A DNA stretch of 62,209 nt from a virus, in IMG/VR virus record IMGVR_UViG_3300032245_001172, positions 1 through 62,209 of that record. One strand, 5' to 3'. Positions 10,506 through 19,325 of the stretch are shown here, in pieces. Both the position numbers and the translations under genes were made by a program. Numbering within the stretch: position 1 is the first letter of the stretch; every line of letters begins with the position of its first letter. The notes under the pieces were generated by a model that made no database searches, was not told where the DNA came from, and saw nothing but the letters and a program-made list of their open reading frames with translations.

Positions 10506-11795
10506 ATGGCAAAAGTTATTACAATGGCAACTCCATCCAAAAAAACTAAAAAAGATAAAATTACAAATGTTTTATTTTTCGGAGATTTTAATTGCACAAC
10601 TGGATTTGGAAATGTATCAAAACAATTAGTTGATAATTGGTCAAAAGACAAAAAACTTAAATTAACTATTTTCGCAATTAATGATTTTTCTGAAAAAGCA
10701 TATCAGTATGCAGATAATGTAATGGTAATACCAGCACTTTCTATTTCAGAAACAAAAAAAGATGTGTATTGTAGAATTGAATTTCTAAATTTATTATATC
10801 AAAATGATTTTGATGTTGTTTTTTGCTTAAACGATATTGAAATATTTAATGAAATGGGAGAGCATTTACAAAATGTAAAATCCGAAAAAAGAAAACAAAA
10901 CAAACCTAATTTTAAATCAATTGTTTATTTTCCAATTGATTCAGAGCCAAGACTTAATGATTTAAAGATACTTTCATTTTTTGATGAAGTAGTTACATAC
11001 ACAGAATATGCAAAAAATGTAATGAAACCATTAATTTCAGAAACACAATTTAAAAAAATAAAAGTAATTCCACATGGTTGTGATACAACAAACTTTTTTC
11101 CATTAAATGATTTTGAAAAAGCCAAAATTAAAGAAGAAAAATTTGGAGCAGATAAATTTGTGTTTGGAAGTGTAAACAGAAATTCAGCAAGAAAAGATTT
11201 AGCAAGTTTAATAATCGGATTTGCTATGTTTAAACATAAAAATCAAGCAAATGATGCTATTTTATACTTGCATTGCAATCCATTAGACAAAGCTGGAATA
11301 AACGTTTATAGACTTTGTGAAAGAGTTGGTTTAGAAGTAGGTAAAGATGTAATTGTACCAACTGATTTTAACGAAAATAATGGTGTTTCCGAATCTGAAT
11401 TAAATAAGATTTATAATTCATTTGATTGTTTTATAACTACTACTACTGCCGAAGGTTGGGGATTAACTATTACAGAAGCTATGGCAACAAAAACGTTTGT
11501 AATTTGTCCAAAACATACTTCACTTGCAGAAATTTCAGATAATGGATTAAATACACTTAATTTTATGTTCGACCAGCAATCAGTTTTTGTAAATGATTTT
11601 GAAAAAATTAGATTTACAACAAATCCAAAAGAAGTGGTTACAGTATTAGAAGTTGTTTATGGTTTACATAAAGAACCAGAAGAACTAAAAGATATGGTTA
11701 GAGCAAAAATTGAAAATGCTTATAAAAAAGTTTCTGGAATGAAGTGGGAAACAATTGCTAAAAAATTCAAAGACTTAATTTACAAATTATCATAA
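10506..11795 (+). CDS. GT4-family glycosyltransferase (429 aa)
   Basis: GT-B fold enzyme. FFGDFNCTTGFGNVSKQL near the N-terminus is the acceptor-side glycine loop; VIPHGCDTTNFFPL opens the donor domain; FGSVNRNSARKDL and TTTTAEGWGLTITEAMA (E-x7-E motif near residue 318) bind the nucleotide sugar. Full length for the family. Last gene of the glycosylation cluster. Confidence 0.9.
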   Translation: MAKVITMATPSKKTKKDKITNVLFFGDFNCTTGFGNVSKQLVDNWSKDKKLKLTIFAINDFSEKAYQYADNVMVIPALSISETKKDVYCRIEFLNLLYQNDFDVVFCLNDIEIFNEMGEHLQNVKSEKRKQNKPNFKSIVYFPIDSEPRLNDLKILSFFDEVVTYTEYAKNVMKPLISETQFKKIKVIPHGCDTTNFFPLNDFEKAKIKEEKFGADKFVFGSVNRNSARKDLASLIIGFAMFKHKNQANDAILYLHCNPLDKAGINVYRLCERVGLEVGKDVIVPTDFNENNGVSESELNKIYNSFDCFITTTTAEGWGLTITEAMATKTFVICPKHTSLAEISDNGLNTLNFMFDQQSVFVNDFEKIRFTTNPKEVVTVLEVVYGLHKEPEELKDMVRAKIENAYKKVSGMKWETIAKKFKDLIYKLS

Positions 11796-11802
11796 ACCAA
11801 GA

Positions 11803-11840
11803 AACCAATTGCAAGGATAAATGCTACAAATACTATGGAA
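11803..11840 (+). repeat. Shared leader repeat, copy 1
   Basis: AACCAATTGCAAGGATAA then ATGCTACAAATACTATGGAA, ending in the start of the gene at 11835. Near-identical copies lead into the genes at 12112, 12430 and 15180. It holds AAGGAT 17 bases before ATG, too far for a normal Shine-Dalgarno. Confidence 0.85.
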
Positions 11841-12074
11841 ATTACAGATTTATGGGTAAAAGTAACATACGAAGTTAGATTAGGAGATTTAGAAATGCCA
11901 CAAGAAGTTTTTGACGAAATTAATGAAGCTATTGATAGGGGTCGTGATATAGATACTATGTCGGGTAATCAAGATGATGATTATATAAACGCTTCTGAAT
12001 GGCTTACAGATAATATAAAAGAAAAAGATTGTATGGAATGGAAAGTTGAAATTATAGAAATAATTGAAAAATAA
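11835..12074 (+). CDS. Small acidic protein under shared leader (79 aa)
   Basis: Strongly acidic soluble protein (LGDLEMPQEVFDEINEAIDR, then SGNQDDDYINASEWLTDN). The start is fixed by the shared leader repeat. I do not know the family. Because two of the three other leader-bearing genes resemble anti-defence proteins, this may be another, perhaps a nucleic-acid mimic, but only context and charge support that. Confidence 0.7.
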   Translation: MEITDLWVKVTYEVRLGDLEMPQEVFDEINEAIDRGRDIDTMSGNQDDDYINASEWLTDNIKEKDCMEWKVEIIEIIEK

Positions 12075-12080
12075 TACAAA

Positions 12081-12117
12081 CCCAATTGCAAGGATAAGTG
12101 CTACAAATATTATGGAA
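12081..12117 (+). repeat. Shared leader repeat, copy 2
   Basis: CCCAATTGCAAGGATAAG then TGCTACAAATATTATGGAA. Differs from copy 1 at a few positions and fixes ATG 12112 as the start of the Tad2-like gene. Confidence 0.85.
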
Positions 12118-12378
12118 TTATTTGATTTTGGTCAAGCTATAAAATGCTTGAAAGAAGGTAAAAAATTATCAAGAAAAGGATGGAATGGAAGCGGAATGTA
12201 CGCTTATTATGTACCAGAAAATTCATATCCAGCACAAACAGAAATAGCTAAAAAAGAATTTGGAGAATTAGTGCCTTACAGACCTTATTTAGCTTTAAAA
12301 ACTGCTCAAAACGATATTGCTACATGGAATCCAAGTACTTCTGATTGTTTAGCAGAAGATTGGTTTGTTGTAGAATAG
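12112..12378 (+). CDS. tad2: Tad2-like anti-Thoeris protein, DUF2829 (88 aa)
   Basis: Matches DUF2829 over its whole length: FGQAIKCLKEGKKLSRKGWN, then YYVPENSYPAQ, PYRPYLALKTAQNDIATW and the end CLAEDWFVVE. Tad2 proteins of this family bind and sequester the cyclic ADP-ribose signal of Thoeris defence. Start at 12112 is chosen from the leader repeat; an upstream in-frame start would add 16 residues that overlap the leader. Activity in this virus is inferred. Confidence 0.85.
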   Translation: MELFDFGQAIKCLKEGKKLSRKGWNGSGMYAYYVPENSYPAQTEIAKKEFGELVPYRPYLALKTAQNDIATWNPSTSDCLAEDWFVVE

Positions 12379-12397
12379 ATTATTAATAAAAAAAAGA

Positions 12398-12435
12398 AAC
12401 CGATTGCAAGGATAAGTGCTACAAATACTATGGAA
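12398..12435 (+). repeat. Shared leader repeat, copy 3
   Basis: AACCGATTGCAAGGATAAG then TGCTACAAATACTATGGAA, ending in the start of the gene at 12430. Confidence 0.85.
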
Positions 12436-12618
12436 TTATCAGTAAACGAAAGAGGAACAATTGAATTAAAAGAAGTTTATAATCCAATAAAACTAATTTC
12501 AGATGAAAAAGAAGAACTAATTGTTTGTATGAGGGATAGTGGTTTTGAAATTATGTATCAAGGCAAAAATTATTCTTTAAAGGAAAATGAATTAAAAGAA
12601 AAGCACCTATCCCTTTAA
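12430..12618 (+). pseudogene. Small phage protein whose 3' end is replaced by a transposon
   Basis: Residues 1-58 are original; the last codons (HLSL and stop) come from the transposon end. Joining 12603 to 15022 across the duplicated GAAAAG restores codons AAA TGA, giving a protein ending LKEKK and a stop that overlaps ATG 15024 as ATGA. Proteins with EVYNPIKLISDEKEELIVC and MRDSGFEIMYQGK occur in Bacteroidetes phages, function unknown. Since only the last residues change, the product may still work. Confidence 0.75.
12598..12603. repeat. Left target-site duplication GAAAAG
   Basis: GAAAAG here is repeated at 15016-15021 on the other side of the transposon. If 8 bp (usual for IS1595), the copies AAGAAAAG and ACGAAAAG differ at one base. 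Confidence 0.6.
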
Positions 12619-12625
12619 TGGAATA
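12608..12625. repeat. Left terminal inverted repeat
   Basis: TATCCCTTTAATGGAATA, exact reverse complement of 14993-15010. A few flanking bases (CACC/ACT) may extend it imperfectly. Confidence 0.9.
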
Positions 12626-12663
12626 AAATTTGATATAAAACCCTAATAATAAAGGCAAAAGCA

Positions 12664-13623
12664 ATGAATTTAATAGAAGTAAATAAAAATTATAATACTC
12701 AAGCAAAATGCTTGGTTTTGTTGGAAAAATTACGTTGGGGTAAAAACGTAAAATGCACTTTTTGTTCATCTAACAAGGTTAGTATGATAAAAAGTGAGCA
12801 GGGGCGGTACTCTTGTAAGAATTGTAAAAAGTCATTTTCTGTGATTGTTGGGACAATTTTTGAAGAAACAAGATTGCCTTTACCTATATGGTTTCAGGGT
12901 ATTGCTTTAATGCTAAATGCAAAAAGCAGTATGTCTGCAAAGGAAATTCAACGAAATCTTGGAATCACATATAAAACATCCTATTATATGTGTATGAGGA
13001 TTCGTATTGGGATGTTAATGCCTGAAACAAAGTTAAACGGGATAATAGAGATGGACGAAAGTTACTTTGGAGGTAAAGCACGTTCAGGACATAAAATACC
13101 TGATAACGAAGTTAGTTTAGCAACTGCTACACAAAAAAGAGGGCGAGGCACAAATAAAGTTTCTGTTGTTGGAATGGTTCAGCGAAAAGGAAATGTAAAG
13201 ACTAAATTAATAGATAAATTAACAAAAAGAAATTTATTATTTATGCTTAAATCTAATGCTAAAAGCGATAATTCGATTTTAATGACAGATGGATTTAAAA
13301 GTTACAAAGAACTTGAAACATATATTGACCGCCTTGTAATTAATCATTCAAAAGAGTATAGTAAAGGAATAGTGCATATCAATACAATTGAGGGTTTTTG
13401 GAGTTATGTTAAAAACGGAATAAAAGGAAGTTTTAAATCCGTAAGCAAAAAATATCTTCCATTATATTTAGTTGAGTTTGAATGGAAATTTAATCATAGA
13501 TATTTCAAAGGAAATGAATTTGAAAAGTTTCTTAAAAACGCATTATTTCAAGAAAAAGAATTAGAACATTGGAAAGCCCAAAGTTCTCAACAAATTAAAA
13601 AAATAGCGTATGGAAACGAATAA
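12664..13623 (+). CDS. IS1595-family transposase (319 aa)
   Basis: N-terminal zinc ribbon with Cys31, Cys34, Cys51, Cys54 (CTFC...CKNC), then the DDE domain with D131 (IIEMDESYFGG), D209 (ILMTDGFKSY) and E243 (HINTIEGFWSYVK). These are the IS1595 hallmarks. It cuts and pastes the element by recognising the terminal repeats. Full length with no frameshift, so probably active. Confidence 0.92.
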   Translation: MNLIEVNKNYNTQAKCLVLLEKLRWGKNVKCTFCSSNKVSMIKSEQGRYSCKNCKKSFSVIVGTIFEETRLPLPIWFQGIALMLNAKSSMSAKEIQRNLGITYKTSYYMCMRIRIGMLMPETKLNGIIEMDESYFGGKARSGHKIPDNEVSLATATQKRGRGTNKVSVVGMVQRKGNVKTKLIDKLTKRNLLFMLKSNAKSDNSILMTDGFKSYKELETYIDRLVINHSKEYSKGIVHINTIEGFWSYVKNGIKGSFKSVSKKYLPLYLVEFEWKFNHRYFKGNEFEKFLKNALFQEKELEHWKAQSSQQIKKIAYGNE

Positions 13624-13792
13624 TAAAAAAGAACAAGAACATTTAACAACTAACTTAAAAGTTGAATTTTCTATTTGTTGTAAAAAATGCGGACAAAAAA
13701 CATCTGGCAATTATACATTAATAAGGAAAATAGATATAAATGAAGATGATAGTTTAATCCCTATTATTGATATTTACAAAGAACCTAAATAA
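13610..13792 (+). CDS. Passenger ORF, hypothetical (60 aa)
   Basis: Overlaps the last 14 bases of the transposase gene and is in a different frame. Contains CCKKCGQKTSG, a possible zinc knuckle. It could be an accessory transposition protein or a chance ORF. Confidence 0.4.
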   Translation: METNNKKEQEHLTTNLKVEFSICCKKCGQKTSGNYTLIRKIDINEDDSLIPIIDIYKEPK

Positions 13793-13989
13793 GGTTTTTT
13801 GCTAATCAATTCTAATAACTTATTTTTCTCTAATTGGTTTTTTGTTTTTATAGAGTAAGTAAGGTATTCTAAATCGTTTTCATTTATTAATACATTATTA
13901 GAAATTTTGTTTAATTCGGAATTAAAATTAGATAAATCTTTCTTTGCTTCTTTATTTGTAGGTATTGGTATTCTGAATTTAATTTCCAT
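13774..13989 (-). CDS. Passenger ORF, hypothetical (71 aa)
   Basis: Charged helical protein starting MEIKFRIPIPTNKEAKKD. It converges on the ORF at 13610-13792 with a 19-base overlap at the 3' ends. No recognised family. Confidence 0.4.
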   Translation of the reverse strand: MEIKFRIPIPTNKEAKKDLSNFNSELNKISNNVLINENDLEYLTYSIKTKNQLEKNKLLELISKKPYLGSL

Positions 13990-14068
13990 AGTATATATAT
14001 TAAGTGGTTAAATTTAACTTCCATTAAGTATATACAAATGTATAAAAAAGTTCTTTGATAAAATAAAA

Positions 14069-14096
14069 AAAAGCGAGGTACAATGCCTCGCTTTAA
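14069..14096 (-). terminator. Rho-independent terminator of the passenger lipoprotein gene
   Basis: Stem AGCGAGG / CCTCGCT with a short loop. Read on the minus strand it is followed by eight Ts, and it lies just downstream of the lipoprotein stop. Confidence 0.8.
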
Positions 14097-14119
14097 TAAA
14101 GTGAATATTATAATTGTTT

Positions 14120-14680
14120 TTACCAAGTATATGAAACGTAAATATTGTATTTAGTATTTCCGTTAATTATTGGAATTACTGATGGGAAATTATTAAATGA
14201 ATTATAAATACTAAAAAACGAGGTACTCATACTCTGAAAGGTATTGTTGCTATCTATATCTCTTAATTCAATTTTAAATAAATTATTTACATTGGTTATT
14301 TGAAGTGGATTAGGATATGTGTATGTATATACCGTATTTGCTTGAGCGTTATTAAAAGCATTAGTACTTGTATTAGAAAATAATGTTGATGTAGTTGCGT
14401 CTGAAAATAATATTGCTATGTCAGGTGCGTTTTGACTTGAGTCTAAAGGAACATAATCCCAAAAACCAGTTACTGCGGAAGGGTCTGTTGCAGGAAAACT
14501 AACAATTTCAATTTTAGAAATAGAAATTTTAGTTGGTGTTACTTGAATTGAGCAATTGCTTCCTGTGTAACCTTGAGGACAATTTGGAACAGGACTTGAA
14601 TTTGTTTCAGAATCTTCAGAACAACTAAAAGCCGTTAAAATTAAAAATAAAACGAATGATTTTTTAAATAGTGTTTTCAT
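14120..14680 (-). CDS. Transposon-borne surface lipoprotein (186 aa)
   Basis: ATG 14680 is chosen because MKTLFKKSFVLFLILTAFSC is a clear lipoprotein signal with the cysteine at residue 20; the longer ORF start would bury it. SEDSETNSS after the cysteine suits flavobacterial surface export. CPQGYTGSNC (about residues 31-40) is an EGF-like fragment common in Bacteroidetes lipoproteins; the rest is beta-rich. It is likely host-derived cargo; its benefit to the transposon is unknown. Confidence 0.75.
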   Translation of the reverse strand: MKTLFKKSFVLFLILTAFSCSEDSETNSSPVPNCPQGYTGSNCSIQVTPTKISISKIEIVSFPATDPSAVTGFWDYVPLDSSQNAPDIAILFSDATTSTLFSNTSTNAFNNAQANTVYTYTYPNPLQITNVNNLFKIELRDIDSNNTFQSMSTSFFSIYNSFNNFPSVIPIINGNTKYNIYVSYTW

Positions 14681-14757
14681 AAAATTTCTTGATAAACCTT
14701 GTTCCGTAGGTTTTTTAAAATTAGTTAAAAACCAAAAGCGTGGAACAAACTCCAATC

Positions 14758-14873
14758 TGTAACTCGGGTATCGCCAAACACCCACTCAACAAGATAAGAG
14801 AAGTCCACGCAGTTCGTGAACGTTCACTTATTAATTCTTTGTTGAGTTTTTTGAAATTGGCGATTTCGAGTAA
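14758..14873. repeat. Large imperfect stem-loop, attC-like in layout
   Basis: Paired segments in order: GTAACTCG with CGAGTAAC (one mismatch), TCGCCAA with TTGGCGA, and ACTCAACAA with TTGTTGAGT, closing on a 12-bp palindrome GTGAACGTTCAC at 14815-14826. Interrupted pairing over about 115 bp resembles folded recombination sites or mobile repetitive elements. It lies in the 5' region of the passenger lipoprotein gene. Confidence 0.6.
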
Positions 14874-14948
14874 CAAGATTAATAGCTAACGCTTATGGTA
14901 TGGTAAGAACGTTTATTTGATATTCACTTTATTTTAATTTTATTTTGT

Positions 14949-14956
14949 CAAATGTA
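14949..14956 (-). promoter_or_regulatory. Possible -7 box for passenger lipoprotein
   Basis: CAAATGTA reads TACATTTG on the minus strand, a good TAnnTTTG box. The leader to ATG 14680 would be about 260 bases and include the stem-loop at 14758-14873. The stretch 14681-15023 contains no other gene. Confidence 0.5.
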
Positions 14957-14992
14957 TTAAAAAGAAAAACATAAACAAACAATAAAAAACAA

Positions 14993-15010
14993 TATTCCAT
15001 TAAAGGGATA
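14993..15010. repeat. Right terminal inverted repeat
   Basis: TATTCCATTAAAGGGATA, exact reverse complement of 12608-12625. Confidence 0.9.
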
Positions 15011-15023
15011 AGTACGAAAAGAA

Positions 15024-15137
15024 ATGAGAAATTTTAAGAATGTAAAAAGCAATAAAGATACAATTGAAGAATTAAACACTATTTATGGAGATTGCTCAAT
15101 AGACCAAACTTCAAATTTTCAAGTTCCATCTAATTAA
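15024..15137 (+). CDS. Small phage protein cut off from its operon (37 aa)
   Basis: ATG 15024 lies in the sequence just right of the transposon. Before insertion this ATG overlapped the stop of the 12430 gene (ATGA), so the pair formed one operon. It is polar with no recognised family. Transcription now depends on read-through from the transposon. Confidence 0.55.
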   Translation: MRNFKNVKSNKDTIEELNTIYGDCSIDQTSNFQVPSN

Positions 15138-15147
15138 TAAGCCAAAA

Positions 15148-15185
15148 AACCAATTGCAAGGATAAATGCTACAAATACTATGGAA
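15148..15185 (+). repeat. Shared leader repeat, copy 4
   Basis: AACCAATTGCAAGGATAA then ATGCTACAAATACTATGGAA, identical to copy 1, ending in the start of the gene at 15180. Confidence 0.85.
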
Positions 15186-15440
15186 AATCAAACACAAAGA
15201 GAATTAACATTCGGAGAAAAAGCAGTAGGATTAACTTTTAATCCATCTGGAGATGAAAAAGTAAATAAAGCAAAGCGATTAATGGCAGATGCTTTAGACT
15301 TGCTAAAAGATTCAGAATTAGAAAAAACAGAATACGGAAATAAAATGACAAGTTGGGAAGCAAATGTTTTTAGAACAAATGCTTTCAATAAAATTGTTGA
15401 TGCTCAAATGTCTTTAGTTAAATACATAACGTGGAAATAA
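15180..15440 (+). CDS. Acb2/Tad1 hairpin-family anti-defence-like protein (86 aa)
   Basis: The pattern FGEKAVGLTFNPSGDEKVNK, then KRLMADALDLLKD and, at the end, FNKIVDAQMSLVKYITWK matches small phage proteins of the Acb2/Tad1 helical-hairpin family, which sponge cyclic nucleotide or cyclic ADP-ribose signals of CBASS, Pycsar or Thoeris defence. Family assignment is from memory of the FNPSGD...VK..TW signature. Its leader repeat is shared with the Tad2-like gene, strengthening the context. Confidence 0.6.
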   Translation: MENQTQRELTFGEKAVGLTFNPSGDEKVNKAKRLMADALDLLKDSELEKTEYGNKMTSWEANVFRTNAFNKIVDAQMSLVKYITWK

Positions 15441-15443
15441 GAT

Positions 15444-15656
15444 ATGGAAAATACATTTTTAGACAGATTAAAAACTGAAAAAAACGAACTACTTGATAAA
15501 ACAACTAAATTAGGAATGTTTTTAACATCCGATAAATCAAAAGAATTGTCAGATGCAAATATTTTATTATTAAAGCAACAATTTGAGATAATGAACGCTT
15601 ATTTAAATATTTTGATAATTAGAGTAGAATTATTAGAAGCGACAGAAAGTAAATAA
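15444..15656 (+). CDS. crAss001_48-related small phage protein (70 aa)
   Basis: Helical protein FLDRLKTEKNELLDKTTKL, then LLLKQQFEIMNAYLNILIIR. This helix pair resembles the widespread small phage family annotated as crAss001_48-related, function unknown. It follows the Acb2-like gene by 3 bases and ends at a strong terminator. Confidence 0.6.
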   Translation: MENTFLDRLKTEKNELLDKTTKLGMFLTSDKSKELSDANILLLKQQFEIMNAYLNILIIRVELLEATESK

Positions 15657-15660
15657 CAAA

Positions 15661-15686
15661 AAAAACCACCAATTAGGTGGTTTTTC
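15661..15686. terminator. Bidirectional rho-independent terminator
   Basis: ACCACC-aatta-GGTGGT stem with T5 on the plus side and eight As before it (Ts on the minus strand). It ends both the anti-defence island and the converging minus gene at 15703. Confidence 0.85.
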
Positions 15687-16004: not shown

Positions 16005-19000
16005 ATGAAAAAAAATAAATTCACAGAATCTAAAGCTGAAAACAACCCTACTGGTGGTGTTTTAGTCGGTAAAAGACAAGGGCAAACAATAATTCATAAT
16101 AAAGGAACATTAAGTGGTTATTTAGTTGGTAAAACACACGCAGAAGGTGGTATAAAAGCAATAAATAAATCTACTGGACAACCATTAGAAATGCAAGGTG
16201 GAGAAGTTGTTATTACTGCACCAGCAGTTTCAGACCAAACAAAACATAATTTTGATGGAGAAATGCTTACGAATCGTGAAATACTTTCAAAAATTAACGA
16301 AAAAGGTGGTGGTGTATCATTTGCAAAAGGTGGAGATGTTCCAAAAAAATTAAAATCAACTGGTGCAAGTTATAATTATGGAGGTCAAACTATGACAGAC
16401 CATGAAATTGTTACTTTAATAAATGGTGGATATGTAAGTTATAAAGATAAATATAACAGAAAATATAAATACAAAAAAAATACTTCACATAGTTTAGAAG
16501 AAATTGCAAAAGATACTGGAATTTCACTAAAAGGAATTAAGCAAATTTACAATAAAGGAATCGGTGCTTATAAAACTAATCCATCCAGCGTTAGACCAAA
16601 TGTTAAGTCAAAAGAACAATGGGCAATGGCAAGAGTTTATAGTGCAGTTATGGGTGGTAAAGCATCTAAAATTGATTCTAATGAATTAAAAATGAATAAT
16701 GGTGGAAAAGTAAATTTAGTTTCTGAATCAAAAAAAGGCGACCATACTTCAAGAGATTTAAATAATTATAATGATTTATTAGATGTTGGAGCAGATGGAG
16801 AAGTTGGTATGGATAATGGATTAGCTTTTGCAAAAGGTGGAAGTCTGGATTTTTTAGATGATGTAGAACAAATTTTTGCCAGAGGTGGTGCTACTGATAT
16901 TATTGTAAACAACTGGAATGATATACCAGATGATTTTAAAAGCATTACATTACCTAAACAGATTGAATGGTCAGCAAACCCAACTAACAAAGGTTTATAT
17001 GAAATTGTAAAACCATTTTTAGAAGTAAAAGACACAAGACCAGCAATGCAAGGTATTAACTTTGATGATATTGGTATTACTGCTACTAATTCACACATTT
17101 TATTAAATATACCTTATGCAGATACTGGATTTGAAGGAGTTTATAAGCCAGTTAAATTACCAAAATCTGATTTAATTTCATCCACTAAAATTGATGTAAA
17201 ATATCCAAATTATAAACAAGTAATTCCTACTGAAAAAGATATAACTAAAGTTTTTGAATATATAAATATAGAAAAACTATTAACTTATTGTAAAATTGCA
17301 AAAAATTTTTCTGGAAAAAATGAAATTGTTTTTAAAATTAATAATGAACAAATGCAATTTTTTCCAGATTATATAATAGATGTTATAACTTCTTGGATTA
17401 AACTTACTGGTTTATCTTATGCTGATATTAGTTTTCAAACAAATAGGAAAGCATTAGTATTTAGTGGAAATCCAACTTTTACTTTAGGTATAAATAGAAT
17501 TGCTTTAATAATGCCTTCTATTTATGGTAGTCAAAGAAAATTAGGTGCAAGAAACGAAAAGAAAAAAGCAGAATTAAATGTTTACTTTGATTTTGATAAT
17601 AATGAAATTCATAATTCAGATGGAAGTGTAGTAACTGATTGGAGTGAGAAACCTAAAAAAACTCGTAAGCCACGAGCAAAAAAGGTAACAGAAACTACTT
17701 TAACAGAATTACCAGAACTTATAAAAATAGGTTTTGCTGATTCAATTGAAATATTACCAAAACCAATAAGAGATTTAATTGCTTATGAGCAATTACTGAT
17801 GGGAGCAACAATGGAAGAAGTTGTAAAATCTTCAAAAAGCGATACAATAAATAGTGTTTTTGGTTGGGATGATACAACTGATGGAGGAGATTTTTGGTCA
17901 AGAATTTCTAATGGTAATTTATTTTATTTTAAAGAAAAATACGGAAAAGCTGGAGAGAAGGCAACTGAATTATTAAATAAATTTTTAGATAAAAAAGGTT
18001 TAACTACATCTGAAACTAAACCATTTGATTTAACAAATACAAAAATCTGGATTGGAGATAATCCAGAATTATCAAGAGCAGTCCAAATGAAAGCATTTCA
18101 ATTAGGATGGAGATGGTCGTCTGGAAAAACACCTAAATATTTAGAAGGAAAAAGTTTGTTTTTTTACGATGATAAGTCAATAGCATATTCTACTAATAGT
18201 AAAACTAATTTTGATAACGACCCTAAAAGAGAAATTTTTGCATCTGATTTAACGTCAGAAGCACAAGCACAATTACCAAAGACAACTTCTGTCGAACCTA
18301 AACCTATTTTAGAAAAAGTTAATTTTGAATTAGAACATAAGTTTTTAACCAGCAGAATAAATGATTTATCTTTAGAACTAAATGTAAAGAAACTTATTTT
18401 AAGTAGAGAAGAAATTAGTTTCTACCAAAGAGAAATTAATAAGTTTATTCAGTTGTTAAGAAACGTAAATGAAAAAGAACAAGCGAGTAAAACTATTTCA
18501 GAAAGATTTGATGCTATTTATTCTGTGAAGTTTGGAGATTTCAAAAAAGAATATCCAACTGCTGATTTAAAATCTATAAATGGATTAACAACAGAATTAA
18601 CAGAGCAAGAATATTTAGATGTTAGAACACCAGAATTTAAAGCATTTTTTGGAGATTGGCAAAACGCTTATCTAACAAATAATTACGATTCTGTATCTAA
18701 AGTCGTTAATGAAAAAACAAAAGAACCAATGCCAGTTTATCATGGTACAAATGTTTTGTTTACAAATTGGAAAACATACGAAACTAACAATGCACATTAT
18801 TTTGCAGTAAGAAGGGATTTTTCAGATTTCTTTGCAACAACTTGGGAAGAAAGAACTGATAAGAGTGCATTAGATTCAAAAACAATAAAAAGTTTAAACC
18901 CAAACAAAGGTACGTTTATGTTTAGATGTTTTATTGATGTAAAGAATCCAATTGACTTTTCAAAATTTGGTGTAGAAAAATATCCAGTAAGTGATTTTTT

Positions 19001-19325
19001 AACATATTTAAAAATTAATTACAATATTGCAGATTATGATTTTTGGACAAATATTAGTTTTAAAGATAAAGTAGATAAAGATACAATGGTATATGCTTGG
19101 CAAATAATTAGATTATGGCAGTCGTTTACACAATATGTAAAATTATTTACTATGCACGATGGTTACATATTTTATGAATTTTTACCAGATTCTCCAAAAT
19201 TAAGTATGGATGATGCTTCATTATGTTATTGTGCTTTTGATAGTAACCAAATAAAGTTTAACGATGCTTATGAATTTAATGCTTTGTCTAATGATTCCAG
19301 ATTTGATTTTGGAGGTAAATTATAA
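16005..19325 (+). CDS. Polyvalent protein with C-terminal ADP-ribosyltransferase-like domain (1106 aa)
   Basis: ATG 16005 is used; an upstream TTG lies in the promoter box. Residues 1-100 hold LVGKTHAEGGIKAI and LEMQGGEVVITAP, a glycine motif of Bacteroidetes phage virion-linked proteins. GG-rich linkers separate domains; two (about 585-660 with TDGGDFW, 677-760 with IWIGDNPEL) recur in the 23636 protein. From about residue 864 it matches ART-PolyVal: DVRTPEFKAFFGDW, MPVYHGTNVLF near 910 and the late FDSNQIKF. Such proteins are thought to enter with phage DNA and act on host targets. Confidence 0.75.
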   Translation: MKKNKFTESKAENNPTGGVLVGKRQGQTIIHNKGTLSGYLVGKTHAEGGIKAINKSTGQPLEMQGGEVVITAPAVSDQTKHNFDGEMLTNREILSKINEKGGGVSFAKGGDVPKKLKSTGASYNYGGQTMTDHEIVTLINGGYVSYKDKYNRKYKYKKNTSHSLEEIAKDTGISLKGIKQIYNKGIGAYKTNPSSVRPNVKSKEQWAMARVYSAVMGGKASKIDSNELKMNNGGKVNLVSESKKGDHTSRDLNNYNDLLDVGADGEVGMDNGLAFAKGGSLDFLDDVEQIFARGGATDIIVNNWNDIPDDFKSITLPKQIEWSANPTNKGLYEIVKPFLEVKDTRPAMQGINFDDIGITATNSHILLNIPYADTGFEGVYKPVKLPKSDLISSTKIDVKYPNYKQVIPTEKDITKVFEYINIEKLLTYCKIAKNFSGKNEIVFKINNEQMQFFPDYIIDVITSWIKLTGLSYADISFQTNRKALVFSGNPTFTLGINRIALIMPSIYGSQRKLGARNEKKKAELNVYFDFDNNEIHNSDGSVVTDWSEKPKKTRKPRAKKVTETTLTELPELIKIGFADSIEILPKPIRDLIAYEQLLMGATMEEVVKSSKSDTINSVFGWDDTTDGGDFWSRISNGNLFYFKEKYGKAGEKATELLNKFLDKKGLTTSETKPFDLTNTKIWIGDNPELSRAVQMKAFQLGWRWSSGKTPKYLEGKSLFFYDDKSIAYSTNSKTNFDNDPKREIFASDLTSEAQAQLPKTTSVEPKPILEKVNFELEHKFLTSRINDLSLELNVKKLILSREEISFYQREINKFIQLLRNVNEKEQASKTISERFDAIYSVKFGDFKKEYPTADLKSINGLTTELTEQEYLDVRTPEFKAFFGDWQNAYLTNNYDSVSKVVNEKTKEPMPVYHGTNVLFTNWKTYETNNAHYFAVRRDFSDFFATTWEERTDKSALDSKTIKSLNPNKGTFMFRCFIDVKNPIDFSKFGVEKYPVSDFLTYLKINYNIADYDFWTNISFKDKVDKDTMVYAWQIIRLWQSFTQYVKLFTMHDGYIFYEFLPDSPKLSMDDASLCYCAFDSNQIKFNDAYEFNALSNDSRFDFGGKL

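What the first reader, a model, noticed from the sequence alone, without database searches (positions are those of the whole stretch)
11803..15656. Accessory island with a shared leader marking anti-defence genes
Four genes begin with the same 37-38 bp leader that runs into ATGGAA. Two resemble Tad2 (12112) and the Acb2/Tad1 family (15180), both signal sponges. The other two (11835 and 12430) are unknown and may be new anti-defence proteins. The leader could be a common regulatory element or a homology block for cassette exchange.
Basis: partly seen in the sequence, partly recalled or inferred. Interest (0 to 1): 0.75.

Follow-up and report, generated by a model that had tools for sequence, protein, structure and literature searches.

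The report
Shared start-joint of swappable phage genes
A nearly unchanging stretch of about 36 DNA letters sits right before the start of small add-on genes, including relatives of proteins that disarm bacterial immunity, in many uncultured viruses (probably of Bacteroidota bacteria), and comparison of related viruses shows genes being gained, lost and swapped exactly at this stretch.

Summary
In detail: four near-identical 36-bp leaders, all running into ATGGAA; none expected by chance. The leader is not private to this virus. It occurs on 58 viral contigs before 31 unrelated families of small genes, in one orientation, nearly always 9 nt from core to ATG. Isolated phages and plasmids gave no match; 85,000 prokaryote species genomes gave one, in a prophage-like contig.

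Related phages differ by whole cassettes with breakpoints in leaders. Two different phage types share a two-cassette block that begins and ends in leaders. In another clade an HNH-nuclease gene plus leader moved as one unit.

Tad2 is confirmed; 15180 is a probable Acb2/Tad1-hairpin relative. The leader is not an anti-defence label: it also precedes ssb-like, HU and capsid-paralogue genes, although Acb2-like is the commonest cargo (17 of 58 contigs).

Best reading: a start-associated sequence that supplies the gene start and is the joint for cassette exchange. Expression role and recombination enzyme are inferred.

The parts
10506..11795 (+). glycosyltransferase, conserved left border of the hypervariable island
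   Evidence: PF00534 E 3.7e-9; homologues directly upstream of the island in about 14 related contigs
11802..11837 (+). leader copy 1 (ATG included)
11835..12074 (+). small gene 11835 (79 aa), unknown function, leader cassette
   Evidence: no family match; homologues with leader in L104 (94% id) and L001 (81% id)
12079..12114 (+). leader copy 2
12112..12378 (+). Tad2 family gene (88 aa), leader cassette
   Evidence: PF11195 E 6.8e-25, 87.8 bits, cut-off 25
12397..12432 (+). leader copy 3
12430..12618 (+). small gene 12430 (62 aa as read), unknown function, 3' end altered by the transposon
   Evidence: homologue in L011 at 59% id, leaderless and part of a longer 128-aa protein
12605..15013 (.). 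IS1595/ISXO2-type transposon, ends marked by inverted repeats
   Evidence: inverted repeat I2, 32 nt, 81% complementary; transposase PF12762 and PF12760
12664..13623 (+). IS1595-type transposase
   Evidence: PF12762 E 1.4e-32
14120..14680 (-). lipoprotein-like passenger gene inside the transposon (signal peptide with Cys read by eye)
   Evidence: 36% id homologue, itself leader-headed, in the island of L108
15024..15137 (+). 37-aa ORF between transposon end and leader 4
   Evidence: ORF only
15147..15182 (+). leader copy 4
15180..15440 (+). probable Acb2/Tad1-hairpin relative (86 aa), leader cassette
   Evidence: 15 of 19 aligned relatives match PF24729, not the protein itself; model pLDDT 84, best VIA Z to Acb2 8h2x (5.9) and Vs.4 7uq2 (5.8), tied with others
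15444..15656 (+). crAss001_48-related gene, no leader here (leader-headed in L043, L059, L007)
   Evidence: PF21825 E 3.9e-17
15661..15685 (+). intrinsic-terminator-like hairpin closing the island
   Evidence: conserved in L104
16005..19325 (+). large polyvalent protein (start chosen by eye), conserved right border
   Evidence: PF19141, weak ART-PolyVal; homologues right of the island in relatives

Best explanation
The leader is a phage-borne start-associated joint. It has a sequence-specific core of about 22 bp plus a 9-nt A-rich spacer ending in ATG, and usually sits directly behind the stop codon of the preceding gene in a same-strand operon. SHOWN: it precedes 31 unrelated families of small genes on 58 viral contigs, is essentially absent from host genomes, and is the place where one-gene cassettes are gained, lost and swapped, within one phage family and between different phage types. 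INFERRED: (1) it carries the start signal for the gene behind it, more likely for translation (fixed spacing, A at -3 and -6, position inside operons) than as a promoter; (2) its 24-36 bp of near-identity lets ordinary homologous recombination or phage strand annealing swap cassettes without breaking genes or their start signals. In this window it heads four cassettes of a hypervariable island that carries Tad2, a probable Acb2-type sponge and two unknown genes.
For: Distribution; near absence elsewhere. Spacing and position: 81 instances with 9 nt core-to-ATG, four with 10-11 nt; upstream stop codon within -3 to +21 nt in 70 of 85. Cassette breakpoints in leaders: L104 vs window, L023 vs L024, L089 vs L011 between different phage types. 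Mobile unit HNH+leader: 4 of 80 ssb-like loci found by protein only carry it; HNH 91-96% identical and 21-nt core identical while ERF (76-83%) and ssb (75-79%) have diverged. Leaders are more alike within a genome than between genomes (mean 3.0 vs 4.4 differences; p 0.002, and 0.0005 among multi-copy genomes) and do not follow gene family (p 0.30).
Against: No expression data exist. Core invariance is partly imposed by the search patterns. Breakpoints between genes are expected anyway in compact genomes, so coincidence with leaders is not proof that leaders cause exchange. Most records hold only one or two copies. Most relatives of the cargo genes do without the leader. The core is only marginally more conserved than the HNH gene it travels with (p 0.006 against third codon positions, 0.047 against all). 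Phage relatedness was not controlled.
Confidence: 0.6

Rival explanations
1. Promoter: the leader is a compact promoter that starts transcription at or near the ATG, recognised by a phage-specific or unusual host factor, and cassettes simply carry their own promoter.
For: Each gene has its own copy; the last copy in the window stands behind a transposon and would need its own promoter if 15180 is expressed; HF2 halovirus intergenic repeats before genes are proven promoters (PMC8707807).
Against: No Bacteroidota -33/-7 motif (TTG-N17-22-TAnnTTTG) in the leader; only 2 of 87 leader contexts have one nearby. No sigma-70 region 4 gene above cut-off in 15 of 16 leader records tested. 1-2 copies even in large genomes. 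Mostly inside operons behind a stop codon.
Confidence: 0.22
2. Homology block only: the leader has no expression role and stays uniform because recombination keeps copying it; cassettes exchange through it passively.
For: Junctions at leaders; similarity follows genome rather than gene; genes without leader are evidently functional neighbours.
Against: Nearly constant distance to ATG and single orientation; core unchanged in single-copy genomes whose ssb and ERF genes differ by about 20%, though there it may have travelled recently with the HNH gene.
Confidence: 0.13
3. One reading: a common regulatory element dedicated to anti-defence genes.
For: Commonest cargo is Acb2-like, 17 of 58 contigs, in subfamilies only 22-29% identical to the window protein; Tad2 in two phages.
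Against: ssb-like (9 contigs), HU/IHF (3), capsid-paralogue (3) and many other cargos; 19 of 20 Tad2 and 22 of 23 distant Acb2-like homologues examined lack it.
Confidence: 0.04
4. The leader is coding: in frame with the ATG it reads NPIARISATNI and the true genes start upstream.
For: The frame is open in the commonest variant; the Tad2 ORF can be extended through it.
Against: 14 of 82 instances read TA at the variable positions (GGTAAAG), an in-frame TAA; spacers of 10-11 nt shift the frame; third codon positions are as constant as first and second.
Confidence: 0.01

Closest known systems
Start-Associated Sequences (SAS) of Cluster K mycobacteriophages (Pope et al. 2011, PMC3203893)
   Same: Short asymmetric repeat just before start codons, one orientation, before unrelated gene families among non-structural genes, virtually absent from the host genome, function unproven.
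   Different: SAS is 13 bp GGGATAGGAGCCC, 3-7 bp from the start codon, contains an AGGAG Shine-Dalgarno core, 11-19 copies per genome in one phage cluster. This leader has a 22-bp core of other sequence, 9 nt from ATG, 1-6 copies, in different phage types, and coincides with cassette breakpoints.
Intergenic repeats of halovirus HF2 (PMC8707807)
   Same: Repeats in front of genes, conserved between related viruses.
   Different: Proven promoters with TATA motifs in an archaeal virus, 58 and 29 bp; promoter activity of this leader is untested and the sequence is unrelated.
Integron gene cassettes (own knowledge)
   Same: Head-to-tail one-gene units separated by a shared short sequence; units gained, lost and swapped.
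   Different: attC sites follow genes, fold as hairpins and need an integron integrase; this leader precedes genes and is unstructured; no such integrase was looked for.
Tad2 and Acb2/Tad1-hairpin counter-defence families
   Same: 12112 belongs to the Tad2 sequence family; 15180 is a probable Acb2/Tad1-hairpin relative.
   Different: Ligand binding untested; 15180 and its close relatives carry extra residues between the helices compared with relatives that match the Pfam model.
Free-standing HNH homing endonucleases of phages (own knowledge)
   Same: In the ssb clade an HNH/endonuclease VII-type gene sits between two conserved genes and is more alike between phages than they are.
   Different: Here it carries the leader at its right edge; most other leader cassettes contain no nuclease.

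Membership tests
Start-Associated Sequences (SAS) | short repeat directly before start codons, one orientation, unrelated genes behind | tested here: met
Start-Associated Sequences (SAS) | consensus GGGATAGGAGCCC, 3-7 bp from the start codon | tested here: not met
   core CC(G/A)ATTGCAAGG(A/T)(T/A)AA(G/A)TGCT, 9 nt from ATG; definition
Start-Associated Sequences (SAS) | virtually absent from host genomes | tested here: met
   one match in the genome collection, in a prophage-like contig
Bacteroidota sigma-A promoter | TTG about 20 nt before TAnnTTTG | tested here: not met
   not in the leader; 2 of 87 contexts nearby
Integron cassette (attC) | strong hairpin in the shared site | tested here: not met
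   folding no better than shuffles
Integron cassette (attC) | integron integrase | not tested
   not searched
Tad2 | match to PF11195 above the curated cut-off | tested here: met
   87.8 bits, cut-off 25
Tad2 | sequesters Thoeris signal molecules | not testable with these tools
   needs biochemistry
Acb2/Tad1-hairpin | match of the protein itself to PF24729 | tested here: not met
   no match at E up to 1
Acb2/Tad1-hairpin | linked to PF24729 through clear homologues | tested here: met
   15 of 19 aligned relatives match at E up to 1, best 4.6e-11; distant ones are 44-55% identical to 15180
Acb2/Tad1-hairpin | Acb2 fold | tested here: inconclusive
   best VIA Z to Acb2 (5.9) and Vs.4 (5.8), tied with unrelated helical chains; Foldseek not significant
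IS1595 family transposon | DDE_Tnp_IS1595 transposase with zinc ribbon | tested here: met
   PF12762 and PF12760
IS1595 family transposon | terminal inverted repeats | tested here: met
   12605-12636 and 14982-15013
IS1595 family transposon | 8-bp target-site duplication | tested here: inconclusive
   only GAAAAG is shared near both ends, read by eye

The most novel reading that the evidence does not exclude
The leader is a dedicated cassette joint: a nuclease or recombinase (for example the HNH/endonuclease VII-type gene that travels with it in one clade) recognises the 22-bp core and actively drives exchange, giving these phages an integron-like platform of ready-to-express, swappable counter-defence genes shared across different phage types.
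Probability: 0.12. Interest if true: 0.88.

Novelty: new variant of a known kind. Interest (0 to 1): 0.62.

Why it matters
How different phages exchange small counter-defence genes without wrecking their expression is poorly understood. A short, searchable sequence that appears to supply the gene start and coincides with observed exchange points makes the question testable. It is also a bait for new anti-defence candidates: most of its 31 cargo families are unknown and sit beside Tad2 and Acb2-type genes.

Tried and rejected
Leader as translated N-terminus: rejected (in-frame TAA in 14 of 82; frame-shifting spacers). Upstream mini-ORF from the internal A/G/TTG: not conserved, since the CTATAA variants stop it. 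RNA structure: none; no Rfam family at the leader (weak matches elsewhere lie below gathering scores). Host Bacteroidota promoter: not in the leader. Shine-Dalgarno: AAGG(A/T) lies about 17 nt from the ATG, and Bacteroidota ribosomes barely use SD (PMC6847099, PMC9976891). Sigma factor common to leader phages: not found. ERF annealing protein common to them: 1 of 16 records. Foldseek of the 15180 model against PDB: nothing significant. Sequence profiles against PDB: only a weak Vs.4 hit, E 0.42, gone with the larger alignment. 11835 model too poor to interpret (pLDDT 60). Leader in isolated phages and plasmids: none. Search among relatives of the Flavobacteriaceae genome behind L072: not possible. 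Match-end statistics were judged biased, because a conserved leader always extends a match; only hand-checked junctions are used. Pairing of the leader with Bacteroidota rRNA was not tested for lack of the rRNA sequence. The gene I call ssb-like has no Pfam match; the name rests on its C-terminal DDNLPF/DDLPF and its place next to an ERF gene.
Full report
1. OBSERVATION. The four leaders exist as described: 36 bp ending in ATG, each continuing GAA, at 11802, 12079, 12397 and 15147, all on the + strand. With up to 3 mismatches no other copy exists in the 62-kb virus record, and shuffled sequence gives none. The first 20 codons of the same transposase follow the Acb2-like gene of another phage, L001, so the element has landed in such islands at two different places.

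2. DISTRIBUTION. Pattern scans of IMG/VR, with the protein-found loci, give 82 distinct leader instances before ORFs on 58 contigs, with 31 protein families behind them; median length 85 aa. The 58 include the window itself and the Flavobacteriaceae contig L072. In 257 Gb of prokaryote genomes L072 is the only match; it looks like a prophage (phage-like ORFs beside LexA- and UmuC-like genes, as read from the ORFs). Isolated phages and plasmids give none. Even records above 100 kb hold only 1-2 copies, so it is not a genome-wide promoter. Bacteroidota as hosts is inferred from L072, the AT-rich sequence and the crAss001_48-type genes; it was not tested directly.

3. ANATOMY. Constant or nearly so: CC(G/A)ATTGCAAGG(A/T)(T/A)AA(G/A)TGCT, then an A-rich spacer, then ATG. 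Part of this is imposed by the search patterns. The CC (79 of 79) and ATT positions are not imposed by the loosest pattern, and the 9-nt spacing is not imposed by the pattern; 81 instances have 9 nt and four have 10-11. The stop codon of the preceding same-strand gene lies within -3 to +21 nt of the leader in 70 of 85 cases: the leader is the intergenic gap of an operon. It is unstructured as RNA.

4. THE ISLAND. The window belongs to a family of uncultured phages that share a glycosyltransferase (10506) and a large polyvalent protein (16005-19325) on either side of a hypervariable island. In about 14 relatives the island holds different sets and orders of leader-headed genes: Tad2, 11835, MNSLDF-type, fam17, crAss001_48, capsid-paralogue and Acb2-like genes. 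The Acb2-like gene is usually the last leader cassette. What I call capsid paralogues are leader-headed relatives of window gene 41930, which I take for a capsid protein only from its setting; no database match names it.

5. EXCHANGE AT THE LEADER. (a) L104 against window: homology from the glycosyltransferase through 11835 runs to a leader and resumes at the leader before the Acb2-like gene; the window has Tad2, 12430, the transposon and a 37-aa ORF in between. (b) L023 against L024: one extra leader cassette. (c) L089, from a 24-kb contig with a DNA polymerase and a DnaB-type helicase, shares with the window-family phage L011 a nearly identical block of two cassettes that starts in one leader and ends in another, with unrelated flanks (the BLAST match, which also spans some unrelated sequence before the first leader, is 96.5% over 565 bp). 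(d) In the 167-kb record a 54-aa gene plus leader is duplicated 2 kb apart, before an Acb2-like gene and before another gene; here the joint could lie anywhere in the repeat. (e) Of 80 ssb-like genes found by protein only, 4 carry the leader. In those 4 an HNH/endonuclease VII-type gene (PHROG 1035, E 2e-24) plus leader replaces the spacer between the ERF gene and ssb. HNH genes are 91-96% identical and the 21-nt core is identical, while ERF (76-83%) and ssb (75-79%) have diverged, so HNH+leader moved as a unit. (f) Leaders resemble each other within a genome more than between genomes and do not follow the gene family. Relatedness of the phages was not controlled in that test.

6. CARGO. Tad2 is firm. 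15180: relatives link it to PF24729 and the model is a two-helix hairpin whose best Z values are to Acb2 and Vs.4, but not clearly above other helical proteins; probable. Gene 15444 is crAss001_48-related. In L007 that domain is leader-headed and fused to an N-terminal stretch that also matches the front part of PHROG 872, whose rear part is the Tad2 region: a hint, no more, that crAss001_48 is a counter-defence domain. Of full-length close homologues of 15180 (80% identity or more), 7 of 8 distinct ones have a leader (one, L108, with a broken start); of 23 distant ones examined, 1 has; of 20 Tad2 homologues examined, 1 has. So the leader is a trait of a phage gene pool, not of a gene family.

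7. MECHANISM. Sequence constraint, near-constant distance to ATG and A at -3 (a known positive determinant in F. johnsoniae, PMC6847099) argue for a start signal. Position inside operons and absence of the host promoter consensus favour translation over transcription, but the promoter alternative stays open: the fourth leader now stands behind a transposon. Twenty-four to thirty-six identical bp is enough for homologous recombination or strand annealing (own knowledge), so no special recombinase is required; a dedicated one is the novel case.

8. COMPARISON. It works like the start-associated sequences of Cluster K mycobacteriophages (PMC3203893, whose function is also unknown; re-surveyed in PMC12699233), but it is not one of them: sequence, length and spacing differ, and the passages read do not link SAS to cassette exchange. 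HF2 intergenic repeats (PMC8707807) show that such repeats can be promoters. I found no description of this sequence in the papers searched, a limited search.

9. VERDICT. Real; new in sequence and in the combination of start element and exchange joint; the anti-defence label is too narrow. Interest 0.62.

Noticed in passing
window 12605-15013; L001 1-60: The same IS1595-type transposase start follows the Acb2-like gene of L001, at a different island position from that in the window.
   Followed up: partly
window 14120-14680 (-); L108 2401-2943: The lipoprotein-like gene carried inside the transposon has a 36%-identical homologue that is itself leader-headed in another phage's island.
   Followed up: no
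L182, L223, L259, L260 (about 961-1500): An HNH/endonuclease VII-type gene plus leader sits between an ERF gene and an ssb-like gene, absent from 76 of 80 relatives; a candidate homing unit that brings its own start sequence for the gene behind it.
   Followed up: partly
L015, L050, L039: A 54-aa gene plus leader is duplicated 2 kb apart in a 167-kb record; contig L039 seems to join the outer flanks with a single copy, as if the Acb2-like cassette had been gained or lost.
   Followed up: partly
L007 8684-9157 (-): crAss001_48 domain fused to an N-terminal stretch that in PHROG 872 precedes Tad2; a lead for the function of crAss001_48.
   Followed up: no
window 30309-56488: Many small proteins with a predicted-looking hydrophobic tail, a P-loop ATPase (39164) and gene 41930 with several relatives; no tail or terminase family was found in the few genes scanned, so the virion may be an unusual, perhaps tailless type.
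   Followed up: no
L108 2959-3246: Degenerate leader whose ATG is followed by a stop codon, before an Acb2-like gene: a possibly decayed cassette.
   Followed up: no
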